Positions 1,058-17,737 of a DNA stretch of 34,354 nucleotides are shown here, in pieces. The stretch lies in assembly GCA_021325385.1 (NCBI GenBank), contig JAJPHH010000131.1, positions 1-34,354 of the forward strand. The letters run 5' to 3'. How positions within the stretch are numbered: position 1 is the first letter of the stretch; each line of letters begins with the position of its first letter. The notes beneath the pieces were generated by a model. The model searched no databases, was not told the DNA's origin, and worked only from the letters and a program-made list of their open reading frames with translations. This DNA comes from Alphaproteobacteria bacterium. GTDB taxonomy: Bacteria > Pseudomonadota > Alphaproteobacteria > Rhizobiales > Beijerinckiaceae. The position numbers were made by a program, and so were the translations under genes.

Positions 1058-1150
1058 CCGAGTCGGCAAATCCCAGACCCAGCGCTGCCCCTCATTCGTC
1101 GCCTTCGGCGGCGCGTTCTCCCCGCTTTACGGGGAGAAGGGGAGCCCGCA
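1058..1150. repeat. Palindromic repeat, copy 3, overlapping the dinB 3' end
   Basis: This is a direct-orientation copy of the repeat at 393-471, with a hairpin of arms 1116-1124 and 1130-1138. It lies between the ParE-like toxin and dinB, and it encodes the last roughly 19 residues and stop codon of dinB on the minus strand. Confidence 0.8.
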
Positions 1151-2399
1151 CCACCGCGCCGGCGCCGAACTTCTCCCGCAGCGCGTCGATGGCCGTCTCG
1201 CGCGACTTCTCCTTGCCGACATCCTTGTCGATCAGATCGCCCTTGTCCGCCTCCTCGGCCGGCGCGAAATCGGCGGCGGCGACGCCGATCAGGCGGAAGC
1301 TCGCGCCGTCGGCCTCACGCGAGAGGAGATCGCGCGCGGCGGCGAAGAGACGGCCGGCGAGTTGCGTCGGCGCGGCGCTGGAGCGGGCGCGGGTGCGCAG
1401 CTTGAAATCGGGCAGGCGCAGTTTCAGCGTCACGCTCCGGGCGGCGAGGCCCTCGCGCTTAAGACGAAGCGCGACCTTCTCGCACAAGCCCAACAGGACG
1501 CGCTCCAATTCGGCCTTGTCCGAAACGTCATTGTCGAAGGTCGTCTCGGCGGAAATGCTCTTCGTCTCGCGCTCCGGCGACACGCGACGTTCGTCGATCC
1601 CATTGGCGAGCCGCCACAGCCGACCGCCTTCCGGGCCGCACTCACGGACCATCTCGGCTTCGCTGCGCCGCTGCACGTCGCCGATCGTCCTGAGGCCCGC
1701 CTTGACGAGCCGCGCCTCGGCGACGCGGCCGACGCCCCAAATCCTGCCGATCGGCTGCGGCTCGAGCAGCGCCAGCGCCTGATCGCGCGCGACAATGGAA
1801 AAACCGCGCGGCTTATCGAGATCGGAGGCGAATTTCGCGAGGAACTTGCAATAGCTGAGGCCGATCGAAACCGTGACGCCGACCTTCGTCTCCACGTCTT
1901 TGGCGAAGCGCGCCAGCGTCGCCGCGGCGCTTCTTGCGTGCAGCCGCTCGCAGCCGACGAGATCGAGAAAGGCTTCGTCGATCGACAGCGGCTCGACCAG
2001 CGGCGTCAGGCTTTGCATCATCGCGCGGATTTCGCGACCGACTTCGGAATATTTGCGCATATTCGGCGCGATGACGATCGCCTGGGGACAGAGCCGGCGG
2101 GCTTGATACATCGGCATGGCCGAGCGCACGCCGAAAGTGCGGGCGATGTAGCAGCAGGTCGAGACCACGCCCCGCCTTCCGCTCCCGCCGACGATCACCG
2201 GATGATCGCGGAGGGCGGGATCGTCGCGTTTTTCGATCGCGGCGTAAAAGGCGTCGCAATCGACATGGGCGATGGTCAGCTCCTTTTGCCCCGGATCTTC
2301 GATCAGGCGCGGCGAGCCGCAATTGGCGCAACGCTTCGCCGCCGCAACGCCGGTAAAGCTGCTGACGCAATCGCGACATATGAACGCAGCGGCGGTCAT
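1092..2399 (-). CDS. dinB: DNA polymerase IV (Y-family translesion polymerase) with N-terminal zinc-ribbon-like extension
   Basis: This 435-residue Y-family polymerase copies damaged DNA with low fidelity. Catalytic residues are visible: D47 in HVDCDAFYAAIE, with Y52 at the steric-gate position, and D141/E142 in PLSIDEAFLD. The helix-hairpin-helix thumb (IGRIWGVGRVAEARL) and a little-finger domain follow. Ahead of the usual start is a roughly 40-residue extension with two CxxC pairs (C8/C11 and C24/C27), which suggests a bound zinc. The last residues (APLLPVKRGERAAEGDE) come from a palindromic repeat and resemble the tail of serS. The start overlaps the stop of the upstream DUF3572 gene (ATGA), so the two are probably co-translated. 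No LexA box was identified by eye. Confidence 0.95.
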   Translation of the reverse strand: MTAAAFICRDCVSSFTGVAAAKRCANCGSPRLIEDPGQKELTIAHVDCDAFYAAIEKRDDPALRDHPVIVGGSGRRGVVSTCCYIARTFGVRSAMPMYQARRLCPQAIVIAPNMRKYSEVGREIRAMMQSLTPLVEPLSIDEAFLDLVGCERLHARSAAATLARFAKDVETKVGVTVSIGLSYCKFLAKFASDLDKPRGFSIVARDQALALLEPQPIGRIWGVGRVAEARLVKAGLRTIGDVQRRSEAEMVRECGPEGGRLWRLANGIDERRVSPERETKSISAETTFDNDVSDKAELERVLLGLCEKVALRLKREGLAARSVTLKLRLPDFKLRTRARSSAAPTQLAGRLFAAARDLLSREADGASFRLIGVAAADFAPAEEADKGDLIDKDVGKEKSRETAIDALREKFGAGAVVRAPLLPVKRGERAAEGDE

Positions 2400-8769: not shown

Positions 8770-10938
8770 ATGTCTCTGGCGCATTTCTTCAAACGTTCGA
8801 CTGCATTGCTCGGGACGCTCGCGCTCCTGTCGAACGCCGCCGCGGCGCTCGCGCAAGAAGACTGGCCGCGAGACGACGGTCGGCATCATGAACAGGGATG
8901 GGAGGACGGCGATGATCATGAAGGGCCCTCGCTCAGAGAGAAGATCGAGCTTCTGCGCCGCAAGGTGAAATACGTGTTCGTCATCTTCCACGAGAACGAA
9001 TCGTTCGACCACTTCTTCGGCTCCTATCCCGGCGCCAACGGCCTGTTCAGCGCGCCGCGCGGCGCAAAGCCGGCCAACGCGACGCCGAGTTTCGAGCAGA
9101 AATACCTCGACACGTCGCTCAACCCCGTGACGATCTCGCCGTTCTTGATCCCCCAGGCGGTCAAGACGGCTGGCGGGCAGATCGCGCCGATCTATCCGGC
9201 CGACGAGATTTCGGTCGACCACAGCCACCAGGGCATGGCGAACAGCCTGCATATCGATCCGACGACAGGCGAGGCGGCGAACGACCGCTACGCCATGGAC
9301 CAAGAGGGTCTGACGACCGACGCAAGCAGCAATATCGTCACCAAAGCGGGCGCGGCGCCGACCGCGATCACCCTTGCGCAAAAGCAGAAAGCCGAAATCG
9401 ATGTCAGCCATATCGATTGCGACACGATCCCCTTCATGTGGCGTTGGGCGAAGAATTTCGTGTTGTTCGACAATTTCCGGCAGACGATCGTCGGCCCTTC
9501 GACGCCGAATGCGATCGCGCTGATCGCCGGCCAGTCCGGTCAGACGCAATGGGCGCTCCATAACAACGAAGCGCCGACGGTAAGCTACGCCAACCCGGCC
9601 TTCCCGAATCCGCTCGGCGCCAGCTACGCCTCGAGCGCGCCGCCGGCCCCTGGCGACGCCAACGCCTTCGTGCCGATCGTCAGCGATCCGGGCCCGTTCC
9701 CGGGCTCGAATCTCGACGCCAGCGCGGTGCGGCCGCCATGGAACGTCAATGACGAGAATCCGGCCAATCCGGCCCTGAACCTGACTTTCGCCAGCCAGCC
9801 GCTCTCGTTCATGGGCAAGAACATCTATTCCGTCATCGCGACGGACCCCAATCCGAGCGCGGATCTGTTGGACGTCCAGCAAGACATCAAAACCATCGCC
9901 TCCGACGATCCGGCGGTCAATTGGGGCTGGTATCAGCAAGGCTTCAACGCCAATGACGCGGCTGATCCTTACCAGTCGCCCAATTCGGGCGTGAACAGCG
10001 GCTACGTGCTGCATCACAACGGCCCGCAATATTTCGGCTATCTCGCCGACAATCCGCAAGTGCTGCACAACAACCTGCACGGCGTAAAGGACTTCCTCGA
10101 CGCCGTCGACGGCCGCATGCTGCCGGCCAATGGCGGCGTGTTCTATCTGCGCGGCGGCTACGACAACAATGACGGGCTCACGCCGGTCGATCCGACGCCC
10201 GCCATTCAGCACGCCTTTATGGGCAACGACGATCATCCGGCCTATTCGGATCAGCAGATCTCGGAGGCCTTCGCCGCCAAGGCGATCAACGCCATCGCCA
10301 ACAGTCCGTACTGGTCGCAAAGCGCGATCATCATCACCTATGACGAGACCGACGGGTTCTACGATCACGTCTCGCCCGAGCGGCGCAGCACGTTCGTCGA
10401 CGGCTCTCAGCTTGCGGCCGGTCCGCGCATTCCGACCATCCTGATCTCGCCTTACGCGAAGTCCGGCAAGATTTCGCATCGCTATAGCGAGCACGGCTCG
10501 GTGATCAAATTCGTCAACGAACTGTTCGGCCTTGTGCCGCTCGCCTCGCTGCCTGACGAGGCGTGGGGGCGCCAAATGGGCCTGGCGAGGCTCGGCCAGC
10601 CGAATCTCGGCCCTTCGGATGATCCGGACAATGATGTCGGCGACCTCACCGAAGCGTTCGACTACGACATCTTGCGGGGAGAAGAAGCGCCGATCCCGGC
10701 GACGCGCGCGACGTTCCCGGACAACGTGGTGAAGACGCTGCCTCACCTGGCGACGCCGAACTATTCGCCCAACGGCTACACCAATGGCGCATGCGCGGCG
10801 ATCGGCATTCTGCCGACCGACTTTCCGTCGAAGGAGGCCTACCAAAAGGGCGAGCCGATCGATCCGTATCCGGGCGACGTCAATCCGCGTCCGACGCAAT
10901 CGCCCGGCGTCCCCACGTCGGGGACCTGGACGCCCTGA
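8770..10938 (+). CDS. Exported phosphoesterase of the phospholipase C/acid phosphatase (AcpA) superfamily
   Basis: The 722-residue protein begins with a Sec signal peptide (to about residue 28, AAAALAQ) and has the phosphoesterase-family layout. The metal site HENESFDHFFG lies at 74-84, the nucleophile motif GPSTPN at 242-247 (T245 the likely nucleophile), the second metal motif TYDETDGFYDH at 523-533, and a late EHGSVIKFVNELFGL. The family hydrolyses phosphomonoesters or phospholipid head groups in the periplasm or outside the cell. The C-terminal domains of haemolytic PlcH-type enzymes are not seen, so an acid-phosphatase-like role is more likely. An Asp/Glu/His-rich linker follows the signal peptide. 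The start has GAAGAGGGG upstream, and a strong terminator follows the stop. A phosphate-scavenging role is inferred. Confidence 0.88.
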   Translation: MSLAHFFKRSTALLGTLALLSNAAAALAQEDWPRDDGRHHEQGWEDGDDHEGPSLREKIELLRRKVKYVFVIFHENESFDHFFGSYPGANGLFSAPRGAKPANATPSFEQKYLDTSLNPVTISPFLIPQAVKTAGGQIAPIYPADEISVDHSHQGMANSLHIDPTTGEAANDRYAMDQEGLTTDASSNIVTKAGAAPTAITLAQKQKAEIDVSHIDCDTIPFMWRWAKNFVLFDNFRQTIVGPSTPNAIALIAGQSGQTQWALHNNEAPTVSYANPAFPNPLGASYASSAPPAPGDANAFVPIVSDPGPFPGSNLDASAVRPPWNVNDENPANPALNLTFASQPLSFMGKNIYSVIATDPNPSADLLDVQQDIKTIASDDPAVNWGWYQQGFNANDAADPYQSPNSGVNSGYVLHHNGPQYFGYLADNPQVLHNNLHGVKDFLDAVDGRMLPANGGVFYLRGGYDNNDGLTPVDPTPAIQHAFMGNDDHPAYSDQQISEAFAAKAINAIANSPYWSQSAIIITYDETDGFYDHVSPERRSTFVDGSQLAAGPRIPTILISPYAKSGKISHRYSEHGSVIKFVNELFGLVPLASLPDEAWGRQMGLARLGQPNLGPSDDPDNDVGDLTEAFDYDILRGEEAPIPATRATFPDNVVKTLPHLATPNYSPNGYTNGACAAIGILPTDFPSKEAYQKGEPIDPYPGDVNPRPTQSPGVPTSGTWTP

Positions 10939-13890: not shown

Positions 13891-14457
13891 TCACCGCAAT
13901 TCTAGCTCGTCGAGCCGTAGGGCGAAGGCGGCGGGCGCGAAGGCCGGGACCAGTCGCTCCGACGCGGCGAAATCCTGCGTCTCGCGATAGCCCTCGGGCG
14001 AGGGCGAACGGAAGACGCGGGTCGTGAGCTTGACGGCGTCGATCACCCAAAGCTCGCGCACGCCGAAGCCGGCATAGAGCTTGGCCTTGCGGCCCATATC
14101 GTAACGCAGAGACGAATCGGCGATTTCCACCACCAGGAGAACGCCGGGCGCCGATAGGGCTTTCAAGCCGTCTGCGCGGCGATAGATCACGACGTCCGGC
14201 TCCATATAGGTGTCCTCGGACAGACGGAACGTCGTCTCGGGCGCCAAGGCGCATTCCACGGGCCTCGCCCGATACCAGCGATCGAGCAGGGCGACTTTGA
14301 GAACTTCGTGCTGGTTCCCTTTCGGCGACATCGGAACCAGCTCCCCATGGATCAATTCGACCCGCTCGTCCTCATCCATGAGGCCGTCCGCGACCATCGC
14401 CTCGACCTCGGCGACGGTGAAGCGGCGTTGCGGCGATTGTCTCCATGCGTGCGCCAT
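13891..14457 (-). CDS. Uma2 family (PD-(D/E)XK) protein, copy A
   Basis: This 188-residue Uma2-fold protein belongs to the restriction-endonuclease-like superfamily. The order is RFTVAEVEAMVADGLMDEDE, VELIHGELVPMSPKG, a putative catalytic Asp in YMEPDVVIYRR, then LLVVEIADSSLRYD, and the catalytic-core Lys in GRKAKLYAGFGVRELWVID. Uma2 proteins are very numerous in cyanobacteria and some other bacteria; their physiological role is unknown and nuclease function is inferred from the fold. All the D-E-K positions are retained. It lies 74 bp downstream of a second copy in the same orientation. The two share a nearly identical 3' part, which suggests recent gene conversion. Confidence 0.88.
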   Translation of the reverse strand: MAHAWRQSPQRRFTVAEVEAMVADGLMDEDERVELIHGELVPMSPKGNQHEVLKVALLDRWYRARPVECALAPETTFRLSEDTYMEPDVVIYRRADGLKALSAPGVLLVVEIADSSLRYDMGRKAKLYAGFGVRELWVIDAVKLTTRVFRSPSPEGYRETQDFAASERLVPAFAPAAFALRLDELELR

Positions 14458-14531: not shown

Positions 14532-15125
14532 TTACGCCAATTCGAGCTCGTCGAGCCGCAGGGCGAAGGCGACGGGCGCGACGGCCGGGACCAGTCGCTC
14601 CGACGCGGCGAAATCCTGCGTCTCGCGATAGCCCTCGGGCGAGGGCGAACGGAAGACGCGGGCCGTGAGCTTGACGGCGTCGATCACCCAAAGCTCGCGC
14701 ACGCCGAAGCCGGCATAGAGCTTGGCCTTGCGGCCGACATCGTAGCTGAAGGACGTATCGGCGATTTCGACGACGAGCAGCGCGGTGTCGCCGGCCAGCG
14801 CTTTCAGCCCCGCGGCGCGGGAATAGACGACGACGTCCGGCTCCAGATAAGTGTCCTCGGACAGACGAAAGGTCGTTTCCGGCGCCAGATCGACATCGTC
14901 CGGCGCCAGGCGATACCAGCGCCGAAGCATCGCGACTTTGACGACCTCGTGTCGATTTCCCTTGGGCGACATCGGAACCAGCTCTCCGCCGATGAGTTCG
15001 ACCCGCTCGTCCTCCTCCATAATGCCGGCGGCGACCATCGCCTCGACTTCGGCCACGGTGAAACGGCGGCGCGGCAGCCCCTCGGCGGCGCGGGTGGTGC
15101 GAGGATGGAAGGCGTGGACGGTCAT
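14532..15125 (-). CDS. Uma2 family (PD-(D/E)XK) protein, copy B
   Basis: This is the paralogue of copy A, 197 residues with a slightly longer N-terminus (MTVHAFHPRTTRAAEGLPRR). The core residues are retained: EPDVVVYSR, LLVVEIADTSFSYD and GRKAKLYAGFG. ATG 15125 is chosen because AAAGGGCAG lies just upstream and homology to copy A begins at RRFTVAEVEAMV; the frame is open much further upstream, but without recognisable content. Bases 14583-14735 match 13942-14094 with one mismatch, while the 5' parts differ much more. Probably both copies arose by tandem duplication and are co-transcribed with B first. The function is as uncertain as for copy A. Confidence 0.88.
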   Translation of the reverse strand: MTVHAFHPRTTRAAEGLPRRRFTVAEVEAMVAAGIMEEDERVELIGGELVPMSPKGNRHEVVKVAMLRRWYRLAPDDVDLAPETTFRLSEDTYLEPDVVVYSRAAGLKALAGDTALLVVEIADTSFSYDVGRKAKLYAGFGVRELWVIDAVKLTARVFRSPSPEGYRETQDFAASERLVPAVAPVAFALRLDELELA

Positions 15126-15463
15126 CAGCCTGCCCTTTGATTTCGATCCTATCATAGGCGTAGCCGGGCGGCGAGGCGGCGCTTTCGGCGAAAAGCATTT
15201 CGCTCGCATGTAGCCGCATTGCGGAAAGCAGCGCGAGTAACTATTGTCGCCGATGCGGCGCATCTTCGGGGGCGCGCCAGACAAGCTTGCTTTCTTCGTT
15301 TTTCTATTCGCGCGTCCCGGACCTGACGGAGGGGACGGTCGGCGTTGTAGCGTTTCTTGAGAGCCCGCGGCCTTGAACCAGCGTCGATGACCCGCGGCGC
15401 GCGGGCGCGCGGAAAAATGGACGCTGATTGAACCTCCAAGTCGCAAGCGGCGACCAACCGGCG
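15126..15463. other. Intergenic stretch without a supported gene
   Basis: The roughly 340 bases between the divergent Uma2 copy B and the first VNHN-motif gene hold short open frames on both strands, but none with a recognisable family or good start context. A GC-only palindromic stretch (CCGCGGCGCGCGGGCGCGCGG, about 15391-15412) and the promoter(s) of the flanking genes must lie here; no clear -35/-10 was picked. Confidence 0.5.
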
Positions 15464-15482
15464 GGCGCCGATGACCGGCGCC
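15464..15482 (+). promoter_or_regulatory. Leader hairpin of VNHN gene 1
   Basis: GGCGCC (15464-15469) and GGCGCC (15477-15482) enclose the loop GATGACC. The hairpin ends 18 bases before the ATG. The second VNHN gene has the homologous hairpin GGAGCC-GACGACC-GGCTCC at exactly the same distance, with a compensatory base-pair change. Confidence 0.55.
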
Positions 15483-15500
15483 GTTCGAAGGAGAACAGCA

Positions 15501-15932
15501 ATGCGCAAATCTCTTGATCACGCCCGATCCGTCCTGTCGCCGAAAGCAGGAATCCTCGCCGCAGCCGCTGTCGCGGCGGCGCTCGCGACCCATTCGGCGG
15601 CCGCTCAGGTCAATCATAACAGCAATCCCGGCGTTTCATCCGTCTGCCAATCGGAATCGCAATACAAGGCGGACCAGATCAAGGCGAAAATCGCCGGGCT
15701 TGAGGAGAAGAAGAAGCGCCTCGAAGCGAAGATCGAAGAAGCCCAGGCGGAAAAGCAGAGCCTCGGCAAGACCGCGCATCCGGCCGGGAGCCTGGAGGCG
15801 CAGATCGGCCGGAACCGGCAGGGTCATCTCGACGTGGAGATCGCGAAATACAAGGCTCAAGTCTACCAGATCACGACCGAGATCGACGCGGCCAGTACGG
15901 AGCTGGCGTCTATCAATCAATGCTCCGGGTGA
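15501..15932 (+). CDS. Small secreted coiled-coil protein, VNHN-motif family member 1
   Basis: The 143-residue protein has a Sec signal peptide (hydrophobic core about 17-35, cleavage expected after HSAAA, before Q36). The mature N-terminus is QVNHNSNPG, followed by Cys49. A long charged helical region rich in Lys/Glu heptads (LEEKKKRLEAKIEEAQAEK, then VEIAKYKAQVYQITTEIDAA) leads to Cys141, three residues from the end. Two Cys residues bracketing a helical hairpin suggest a disulphide-closed coiled coil in the periplasm. The start at 15501 has AAGGAG 7 bases upstream. I do not recognise the family. The next two genes share the signal peptide layout and the QVNHN motif, so this is a tandem paralogue set. 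Confidence 0.85.
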   Translation: MRKSLDHARSVLSPKAGILAAAAVAAALATHSAAAQVNHNSNPGVSSVCQSESQYKADQIKAKIAGLEEKKKRLEAKIEEAQAEKQSLGKTAHPAGSLEAQIGRNRQGHLDVEIAKYKAQVYQITTEIDAASTELASINQCSG

Positions 15933-15995
15933 CGCGCAGCCGGCATCGCGCGCGGCGGTTGAACCTTTCGACCCGCCGTCGCGACCAACGGTCTG

Positions 15996-16014
15996 GGAGC
16001 CGACGACCGGCTCC
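15996..16014 (+). promoter_or_regulatory. Leader hairpin of VNHN gene 2
   Basis: GGAGCC (15996-16001) and GGCTCC (16009-16014) enclose GACGACC. It lies 18 bases before the ATG, as in gene 1. The central C-G pair of gene 1 is A-T here, so pairing is kept although sequence changed. The surrounding leader (TTGAACCT ... GCGACCAAC) is also shared. Confidence 0.55.
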
Positions 16015-16032
16015 GATTTTCAGGAGGAGTTC

Positions 16033-16344
16033 ATGCGCAAGTCAATCGCAACAGCCTCGGCGCCGGCCGCCTTGCGGTCTCATCGCCTCATGATCGCGCT
16101 CGCGGCCGCTATTCTGGCCGCGTCCATTCCGCCCGCGGCGGCCCAGGTCAATCACAACAGCAACGATACCGGCGGTTCGTCCTCGCACGCGAACGATTGC
16201 CCGCCGGGGAAGAAGCGCGCTTTGGAGCACCAGCTCGAAAGCATGGAGCGCACGCGCGACCGCATCGCTCGCCAGCACGGCGACACCGGTTCGATCGATC
16301 GCGCGATGGACAGGGCCCAGAAAGAATTGGCGGCCTGCCATTAG
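16033..16344 (+). CDS. Small secreted protein, VNHN-motif family member 2
   Basis: The 103-residue product has a signal peptide (hydrophobic core about 19-36) with cleavage expected after PPAAA, giving a mature QVNHNSNDTGG start that is almost identical to member 1. A Ser/Gly/His linker is followed by Cys56 (NDCPPGKKRALEHQL), a short helical hairpin (ESMERTRDRIARQHGDTGSI, then DRAMDRAQKELAA) and Cys102 next to the end. The Cys-helix-helix-Cys plan is shared with member 1, but the helices are shorter and the sequences have diverged. The AGGAGG-type ribosome binding site is strong. It is 100 bp downstream of member 1 in the same direction. The function is unknown; a secreted stress or envelope role is only a guess. 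Confidence 0.85.
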   Translation: MRKSIATASAPAALRSHRLMIALAAAILAASIPPAAAQVNHNSNDTGGSSSHANDCPPGKKRALEHQLESMERTRDRIARQHGDTGSIDRAMDRAQKELAACH

Positions 16345-16441
16345 ACCTGGGCGTGCGGGCTGGTCGTCCAATTTGACGCTGGTCGAACTTGGAAGCGCCC
16401 GTCAGCGGCTGCGAAGCCCTGATAGGCCTCGAGGGGAGTTC

Positions 16442-16686
16442 ATGCGCAATTCGCGAACAGAACGAACGCCCCGCGTACGGCGTCGCTATCTTGCCGCCTG
16501 ATCATCGCGGCCGCGGCCTCTCTTTTGGCCGCGGTCGCCGTCCAGCCCGCGCCCGCGCAAGTGAACCATAATGACAACAATCCGATCGTGACGCCGCAGG
16601 CGAAAGCGCCGTGCCCGCCATCGCGAAATGGGTCGTCAGAAATCCGGGAAGCTACGGAAACGCTTGGACGTTTGAGCCGCCAATGA
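16442..16686 (+). pseudogene. VNHN-motif family member 3, frameshifted and shortened
   Basis: ATG 16442 follows GAGGGGAGTTC and begins MRNSRTERTP as in the other members, but its frame ends at a TGA after 19 codons. Shifting frame inside the basic region restores a normal signal peptide (CRLIIAAAASLLAAVAVQPA) and the motif QVNHNDNN, then APCPPSRNG and a stop at 16684-16686. One Cys remains, and the helical hairpin with the second Cys is missing. It therefore looks like a third tandem copy that has been inactivated by a single-base indel and lost part of its 3' end. Programmed frameshifting is possible but has no visible slippery site. Confidence 0.75.
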
Positions 16687-16708: not shown

Positions 16709-17737
16709 CTACGCCGTCCTCTTCCGCGATTTTGCGAACGTATCGAACGCCACCGCCAGCACGATGATCACGCCGATGATGATCTGCTGGATGTAAGACG
16801 ACACATCCATGAGTACGAGGCCGTTGAGCAGCACGCCGATCAGCACCGTGCCGATCACGGTGCCGAATATCGTGCCGACGCCGCCGAACAGGCTAGTGCC
16901 GCCGATCACCACCGAGGCGATGACGGTCAGCTCGTAGCCGATGCCGGCGACGGCTTCCGAGGAGTTCAACCGCGCGGAGAGTACGAAAGCGCCGAGCCCA
17001 GCGAAGAAGCCCATGATCACATAGACGCTGGAGATCACGCGCCGCACATTAAGGCCTGAGAGCCGCGCCGCCTCGGGATTGCCGCCGACGGCATAGACCT
17101 GGCGGCCATAGCGGGTATAGCGCAGCACGATATGGGCGAGGACGGCGAAGGCGACGAAAATGATCACCGGCACCGGCACGGGCCCGATCTTGCCCTGGCC
17201 CCACCAGACATAGGCGGGATCGAAGCCGCTGATCGGGCCGCCGCCGGCGAAGAGCAGGGCGGCGCCGCGAAAGACCGACATGCCGCCGAGCGTCACGACG
17301 AAAGGCGGCACCTTGAACCTGGTGATCGCCTGGCCCTGCAGCCAGCCGCCGGCGATTCCGACGGCGACGGCGGCGAGCGCGGCGAGCGGCCAGCCATAGC
17401 CGAGCGCCTCCTGGCCGGCGCCGACATTGAAGCGGTTGGAAATGCCGCCCTTGTCCACCGCCGCCGCGACGAGGCCGGCGAAAGCGAGCAGCGAGCCGAT
17501 CGAAAGGTCGATGCCGGCGGTCAGGATGACGAAGGTCATGCCGACGGCGAGCAAGCCATAGACCGAGACTTGGCGCATCACGTTGAAGAGATTGAGCGGG
17601 CTCAAGAAACGCGGCTCGCCGACGGCGAACGCGGCCATCAGCACGACGAGAAAGAGGAGCGGCGCGAAACGGGCGACGATCCCGATCGGATCGGCCTTGA
17701 CCGGCGCGGCGGCTTCGATGGTCTTTGCTTCGCTCAT
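16709..17737 (-). CDS. Sugar ABC transporter permease (RbsC/IatP-like)
   Basis: This 342-residue inner-membrane permease of the carbohydrate-uptake-2 (CUT2) family has about ten hydrophobic segments. Typical motifs are visible: SLNLFNVMRQVS-type entry (LNLFNVMRQVSVYGLLAVGM), AGIDLSIGSLLAFAGL, the EAA-like loop AVGGNPEAARLSGLNVRR, and VIGGTSLFGGVGTIFGTVIG. It forms the translocation pore with the binding protein at 20530 and the double ATPase at 19490. Gene order binding protein-ATPase-permease is the same as the Caulobacter inositol importer (ibpA-iatA-iatP). A 223-bp gap containing a long inverted repeat separates it from the ATPase gene, unusual within an operon. The substrate is a pentose, hexose or polyol and is not determined. 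Confidence 0.93.
   Translation of the reverse strand: MSEAKTIEAAAPVKADPIGIVARFAPLLFLVVLMAAFAVGEPRFLSPLNLFNVMRQVSVYGLLAVGMTFVILTAGIDLSIGSLLAFAGLVAAAVDKGGISNRFNVGAGQEALGYGWPLAALAAVAVGIAGGWLQGQAITRFKVPPFVVTLGGMSVFRGAALLFAGGGPISGFDPAYVWWGQGKIGPVPVPVIIFVAFAVLAHIVLRYTRYGRQVYAVGGNPEAARLSGLNVRRVISSVYVIMGFFAGLGAFVLSARLNSSEAVAGIGYELTVIASVVIGGTSLFGGVGTIFGTVIGTVLIGVLLNGLVLMDVSSYIQQIIIGVIIVLAVAFDTFAKSRKRTA

What the first reader, a model, noticed from the sequence alone, without database searches (positions are those of the whole stretch)
15501..16686. Tandem family of small secreted proteins sharing a QVNHN mature N-terminus
Three adjacent plus-strand genes start with MRxS and a signal peptide; predicted mature proteins begin QVNHNSN, QVNHNSN and QVNHNDN. 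After that motif the sequences diverge, but members 1 and 2 keep a Cys-helix-helix-Cys plan (Cys49/Cys141 and Cys56/Cys102). I do not recognise the family. Strong conservation restricted to the first mature residues suggests a recognition, metal-binding (His/Asn) or processing role for the N-terminus, with a variable disulphide-closed coiled coil behind it.
Basis: partly seen in the sequence, partly recalled or inferred. Interest (0 to 1): 0.75.

Follow-up and report, generated by a model that had tools for sequence, protein, structure and literature searches.

The report
Orphan tandem family of secreted proteins
One unnamed bacterium carries a row of two intact and one apparently broken small exported proteins that share a five-letter front end (QVNHN) and little else, and no relative turned up in the collections searched, so they look like home-grown genes whose job is still unknown.

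Summary
The core observation holds. Three segments encode an Ala-rich signal-peptide-like stretch followed by QVNHNSN, QVNHNSN and QVNHNDN; these are the only QVNHN-pattern matches in the 5.35 Mb genome, reversed control 0. One detail is wrong: member 3's MRNS start is not in the motif's frame, so member 3 looks decayed or mis-assembled. The five motif codons differ only silently (M2-M3: 5 silent, 0 replacing), so the peptide seems to have been kept. The duplicated unit begins about 50 bases upstream for M1/M2, with a hairpin carrying one compensatory pair; past the motif, DNA similarity is at shuffle level. M1 reads as a two-helix coiled coil between two Cys, M2 as a shorter version (inferred; structure prediction failed). 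No relative was found: 0 of 10 other genus genomes (M1), 0 of 396 other order genomes (exact pattern), 0 of 384 other class genomes (profile); 4 pattern hits among 84,980 species are out of context. Best reading: an orphan exported family with a constrained mature N-terminus, probably a docking tail; metal binding is untested.

The parts
15464..15482 (+). hairpin upstream of M1: 7-pair stem, 5-base loop, ends 18 bases before the ATG
   Evidence: forms in both M1 folds; perfect stem of 7
15501..15932 (+). M1, 143 aa precursor; signal-peptide-like part 15501-15605, predicted mature protein 15606-15929 with QVNHNSN and Cys49/Cys141
   Evidence: coding-like GC by codon position 0.64/0.45/0.75
15606..15626 (+). 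QVNHNSN motif of M1
15996..16014 (+). hairpin upstream of M2, same offset to the ATG as in M1, one compensatory pair (C-G in M1, A-T in M2)
   Evidence: forms in the 124-base fold but not in the minimum-energy structure of the 59-base fold
16033..16344 (+). M2, 103 aa precursor; signal-peptide-like part 16033-16143, predicted mature protein 16144-16341 with QVNHNSN and Cys56/Cys102
   Evidence: GC by codon position 0.63/0.55/0.81
16144..16164 (+). QVNHNSN motif of M2
16442..16501 (+). M3 start (MRNS...) that runs into a stop before the hydrophobic stretch
16444..16686 (+). M3 second frame: hydrophobic stretch, APA, QVNHNDN, one Cys after the motif, one short helix; no proper start in this frame
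   Evidence: matched by M2 at E 1.6e-7 in the own genome
16558..16578 (+). QVNHNDN motif of M3

Best explanation
A lineage-restricted (orphan) family of small exported proteins made by tandem duplication of one gene. Steps: (1) Sec-type signal peptide, cut by signal peptidase I after AxA, leaving Gln as first residue (inferred from the sequence); (2) in the periplasm or outside, the two Cys close an antiparallel two-helix coiled coil, about four heptads per helix in M1 and two in M2 (inferred from heptads and Cys places); (3) a flexible Asn/Ser/Gly-rich tail carries QVNHN at the free end, and this end is the constrained part: it keeps its residues while its codons drift (shown), so it probably docks to one common partner in the envelope while the coiled-coil bodies differ (inferred). 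M3 is a decaying or mis-assembled copy. M1 and M2 also share a 5' hairpin, suggesting common control (inferred).
For: Only 3 motif matches in the genome, all here. Motif codons: M2-M3 5 silent and 0 replacing changes, M1-M3 4 and 0, M1-M2 1 and 0; chance of all silent for random changes 9.1e-5, 5.9e-4, 0.16. In A+QVNHNxN 8, 7 and 7 of 8 residues agree for M1-M2, M2-M3 and M1-M3, against 14 of 33, 14 of 36 and 10 of 34 in the signal part and 12 of 59, 8 of 35 and 5 of 35 after it. Heptad contrast: M1 helix 1 reached by 6 of 5000 shuffles, helix 2 by 0, M2 helix 2 by 21. Codon-position GC is coding-like. No relative found.
Against: No partner, expression, export or disulphide was shown. M2 helix 1 is not above shuffles (645 of 5000). 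The silent-change test is post hoc, on five codons, and the three comparisons are not independent. M3 being broken argues that not every copy is needed. The M2 hairpin is not the minimum-energy structure of the short fold, and 55 of 1716 40-base windows of this contig hold a perfect stem of 7 or more.
Confidence: 0.4

Rival explanations
1. Young duplicated genes with little or no function: the shared front is what is left of the duplication, and the motif was kept by chance.
For: M3 is frame-broken and short; no relative found; the downstream side of the neighbouring ABC operon differs in the three genus genomes that hold its permease at 73-88% identity in the matched pieces, and none of the three fetched stretches holds M genes; M1 and M3 have lower third-position GC (0.75, 0.70) than the two ABC genes measured (0.88, 0.87), though the WYL gene has 0.76.
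Against: Motif codons differ only silently while the flanks have lost most residues; coding-like GC by position in M1 and M2.
Confidence: 0.3
2. The conserved end is a metal site or a processed terminus: the His/Asn-rich QVNHN binds Cu/Ni/Zn, or Gln cyclises to pyroglutamate.
For: Gln after an AxA cut and His at place 4 in all three. Disordered His-rich N-terminal parts matter for copper in a bacterial outer-membrane protein, PcoB (PMC12509749; abstract and start of the introduction read).
Against: The amino-terminal Cu/Ni motif as I recall it needs His at place 3, here 4 if the cut is before Gln; one His per chain; the neighbours scanned show no metal gene (11 proteins in all).
Confidence: 0.12
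3. Far members of a known Cys-helix-helix-Cys periplasmic family such as DUF1090 (E. coli YqjC).
For: By eye, M2 helix 2 and YqjC share I-D and the spacing of 14 residues from that I to the closing Cys.
Against: No PF06476 match for M2 at E up to 1, none in the own genome at E up to 0.1; a profile from 8 DUF1090 proteins gives mature M2 2.5 bits, reached by 24 of 300 shuffles.
Confidence: 0.06

Closest known systems
DUF1090 / YqjC (PF06476)
   Same: Small exported protein with a Cys, a helical pair and a second Cys (helices inferred)
   Different: No profile match; no QVNHN; YqjC has about 60 further residues after the second Cys
Generic two-helix coiled coils (weak hits: CLIP1, FosB, seryl-tRNA synthetase arm, SMC-like models)
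   Same: 4-3 heptad pattern in M1
   Different: Low-score matches below curated cut-offs where there are any; nothing on the signal peptide, Cys pair or motif
Taxonomically restricted (orphan) bacterial genes
   Same: No detectable relative in the collections searched; small; duplicated
   Different: A duplicated set with a motif under silent-only change; the only paper listing I saw on the bacterial topic is PMC10003748 (listing and start of abstract)

Membership tests
DUF1090 (PF06476) | match to the family profile over its cut-off (24.4 bits) | tested here: not met
   0 families for M2 at E up to 1; own genome no match at E up to 0.1; 0 of 31 genomes over the cut-off; 2.5 bits, 24 of 300 shuffles as good
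DUF1090 (PF06476) | Cys-helix-helix-Cys hairpin fold | not testable with these tools
Sec/SPase I exported proteins | positively charged start, hydrophobic core, small residues at -3 and -1 | tested here: met
   12-residue hydropathy 2.56, 2.76, 2.57 and AAA, AAA, APA before Gln for M1, M2 and the M3 second frame; no dedicated signal-peptide predictor was run
Disulphide-closed two-helix coiled coil | 4-3 heptads in both helices and a Cys on each side | tested here: inconclusive
   M1 met in both helices (6 and 0 of 5000 shuffles); M2 helix 2 met (21 of 5000), helix 1 not (645 of 5000); segments were chosen by me
Amino-terminal Cu/Ni (ATCUN) proteins | free N-terminus with His at place 3 (definition recalled) | tested here: not met
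   His is at place 4 if the cut precedes Gln; the cut itself is inferred
Bacterial orphan genes | no relative outside the lineage | tested here: met
   within the limits

The most novel reading that the evidence does not exclude
QVNHN at the mature N-terminus is an address or ligand tag: a short free-end peptide, perhaps cyclised or metal-loaded, that lets structurally different coiled-coil bodies dock on one envelope partner, in a family that arose within one bacterial lineage.
Probability: 0.12. Interest if true: 0.6.

Novelty: new variant of a known kind. Interest (0 to 1): 0.3.

Why it matters
If true, it is a clean small case of a new exported gene family in the making: duplication, retention of only a front-end peptide, divergence of the bodies and decay of one copy, with a short peptide that can be tested directly for a partner or a metal. 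If the motif is only a leftover, it is an ordinary orphan gene cluster.

Tried and rejected
Known-family search: Pfam, NCBIfam, PHROGs, PADLOC and solved-structure sequences gave no match over a curated cut-off for M1-M3. The lowest E-values were NCBIfam ASRP 4.8e-5 (22.2 bits, cut-off 300) for M1, PHROG 5392 (unknown function) 0.00096 for M3, covering its signal part, and CLIP1 0.0052 in solved structures for M1. I judge these to be coiled-coil or signal-peptide likeness.

Motif elsewhere: every hit that I read in other genomes or viral contigs lies out of signal-peptide context. L005 (AAQVNHN inside a 501-aa ORF); 7 viral and 4 species-collection stretches; 2 genus loci with up to 2 mismatches; 3 family loci with 1 mismatch. 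In one search the reversed control also hit once in 397 genomes. The species-collection pattern restricted the residue after QVNHN (WSN), so a QVNHNDN-type relative would be missed there.

Protein search of M2 in 120 genomes: 87 had something at E up to 1, the own genome included; best outside value 0.0021. I read 9 of the 19 outside loci fetched; none had the motif, one (L023) has an Ala-rich signal-peptide-like part only. Matches that were not fetched were not read.

DUF1090 kinship: rejected on profile evidence. REP-like or Rfam element for the 5' hairpin: no Rfam match near a gathering score (best E 0.19), and a loose hairpin-plus-SD pattern found the M2 copy without mismatch and 3 other places with 2 mismatches; that pattern's spacing does not fit M1. 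Phage or plasmid origin: no match (M1 was not run against phages). Nucleotide search of the locus in plasmids: 316 records, and the 20 listed all cover only the ABC permease end. Host name: not found; no 16S in the genome.

Full report
What is there. M1 (15501-15932, 143 aa) and M2 (16033-16344, 103 aa) are open frames with a purine-rich stretch before the ATG, a start MRKS, a hydrophobic core, AAA and then QVNHNSN. GC by codon position is coding-like: 0.64/0.45/0.75 and 0.63/0.55/0.81. Its part after the motif is short and has one Cys. The contig belongs to a 209-contig draft, so an assembly error cannot be excluded.

Is it more than chance. CARGTNAAYCAYAAY matches three times in 5.35 Mb, all here, reversed control 0. 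Each pair of whole proteins scores above all 2000 shuffles. DNA identity by stretch (200 shuffles each): the 31-base hairpin stretch M1-M2 0.78 (shuffle maximum 0.66), M2-M3 and M1-M3 0.48 (at shuffle level); signal part 0.59, 0.65 and 0.60 for M1-M2, M2-M3 and M1-M3 (maxima 0.55-0.58); motif 0.88, 0.67 and 0.67 (maxima 0.62-0.65); after the motif 0.48, 0.50 and 0.47 (maxima 0.54-0.55). So the copies are homologous in front, and their bodies are beyond DNA recognition.

Constraint. The five QVNHN codons differ by 5 silent and 0 replacing changes between M2 and M3, 4 and 0 between M1 and M3, 1 and 0 between M1 and M2; for random changes the chance of all silent is 9.1e-5, 5.9e-4 and 0.16. In the alignment A3 the A+QVNHNxN stretch keeps 8, 7 and 7 of 8 residues (M1-M2, M2-M3, M1-M3), the signal part 14 of 33, 14 of 36 and 10 of 34, the rest 12 of 59, 8 of 35 and 5 of 35. 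This was looked for after seeing the motif and the comparisons share data, so I treat it as good but not final evidence.

Body. M1: heptad places I60 I64 L67 K71 L74 I78 A81 K85 L88 and L110 I114 Y117 V121 I124 I128 A131 L135 I138, reached by 6 and 0 of 5000 shuffles. M2: I88 M92 A95 L99 C102 (21 of 5000) and K61 L64 L68 M71 R75 I78 H82 (645 of 5000, not above chance). M3: I67 A70 L74 L77 (19 of 5000) (segments chosen by me). With the Cys pairs this suggests an antiparallel hairpin, long in M1 and short in M2.

5' hairpin. Upstream of M1 and M2 stands GGCGCCG-ATGAC-CGGCGCC and GGAGCCG-ACGAC-CGGCTCC, each ending 18 bases before the ATG, with one pair changed on both sides. Against it: the 59-base M2 stretch prefers another fold (80 of 200 shuffles as stable), although the 124-base stretch forms it (6 of 200); M1 short and long folds had 11 and 0 of 200. 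Perfect stems of 7 or more occur in 55 of 1716 windows of the contig. M3 has only a 4-pair perfect stem there. No Rfam match neared its gathering score.

Relatives. M1 in the genus: 0 of 10 other genomes. Exact AAQVNHN pattern in the family sample: 1 of 198 others, inside an unrelated long ORF. A-QVNHN-x-N in the order sample: 0 of 396 others; in the family sample with one mismatch 3 of 396 others, all out of context; in the genus with two mismatches 2 of 10 others, out of context. Species collection (84,980 species): 4 stretches, out of context. Profile of the three in the class sample: 0 of 384 others at E up to 0.001, with at most 10 candidates scored per genome. M2 in 120 genomes: best outside E 0.0021, 9 outside loci read, no relative. 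Viral contigs, phages (M2) and plasmids: none. The genome's own very near kin may be left out of the named collections, as the tools state.

Surroundings. Upstream on the minus strand are two Uma2-type genes (13891-14457; Uma2 domain within the frame 14532-15617), then a WYL/HTH regulator; downstream on the minus strand a sugar-type ABC operon (permease 16709-17737, ATPase, binding protein). Three genus genomes (G005, G002, G006) hold close copies of the permease (matched pieces 80%, 88/73% and 81% identical). In the stretches fetched there, none of M1-M3 or the two Uma2 proteins matched at E up to 1e-3. So the M genes sit at a place whose content varies in the genus. No modification, metal or secretion gene was found among the 11 neighbour proteins scanned with Pfam.

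Mechanism. Shown: frames, motif, silent-only motif change, narrow distribution in the sets searched. Inferred: export, cut before Gln, disulphide hairpin, docking by the free end. I give 0.4 to the docking-tail reading, 0.3 to young genes with little function, 0.12 to a metal or processed terminus, 0.06 to a far DUF1090 relative; the rest is unknown.

Literature. Searches. 'VNHN' with 'signal peptide' gave 2 papers, by title a scorpion venom transcriptome and a coronavirus vaccine design (listing only). Of PMC12509749 I saw the abstract, the start of the introduction and the outline; the other papers only as listings with the starts of abstracts. I found no paper on this family in those searches.

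Noticed in passing
window 13891-14457 and 14532-15617 (minus strand): Two adjacent Uma2-family (putative restriction endonuclease fold) genes next to the M genes, absent by tblastn from the three ABC-operon stretches fetched from other genus genomes.
   Followed up: partly
L061 7735-8728 (G002:C278): The permease relative in another genus genome matches in two pieces in different frames, so it is broken or mis-assembled there.
   Followed up: no
window 15464-15482 and 15996-16014: Matching hairpins before M1 and M2 with one compensatory pair and equal distance to the start; possible shared control element.
   Followed up: partly
window 1092-2399 (minus) and 8770-10938 (plus): An IMS-family (Y-family polymerase-like) gene and a PF04185 phosphoesterase gene on the same contig.
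   Followed up: no
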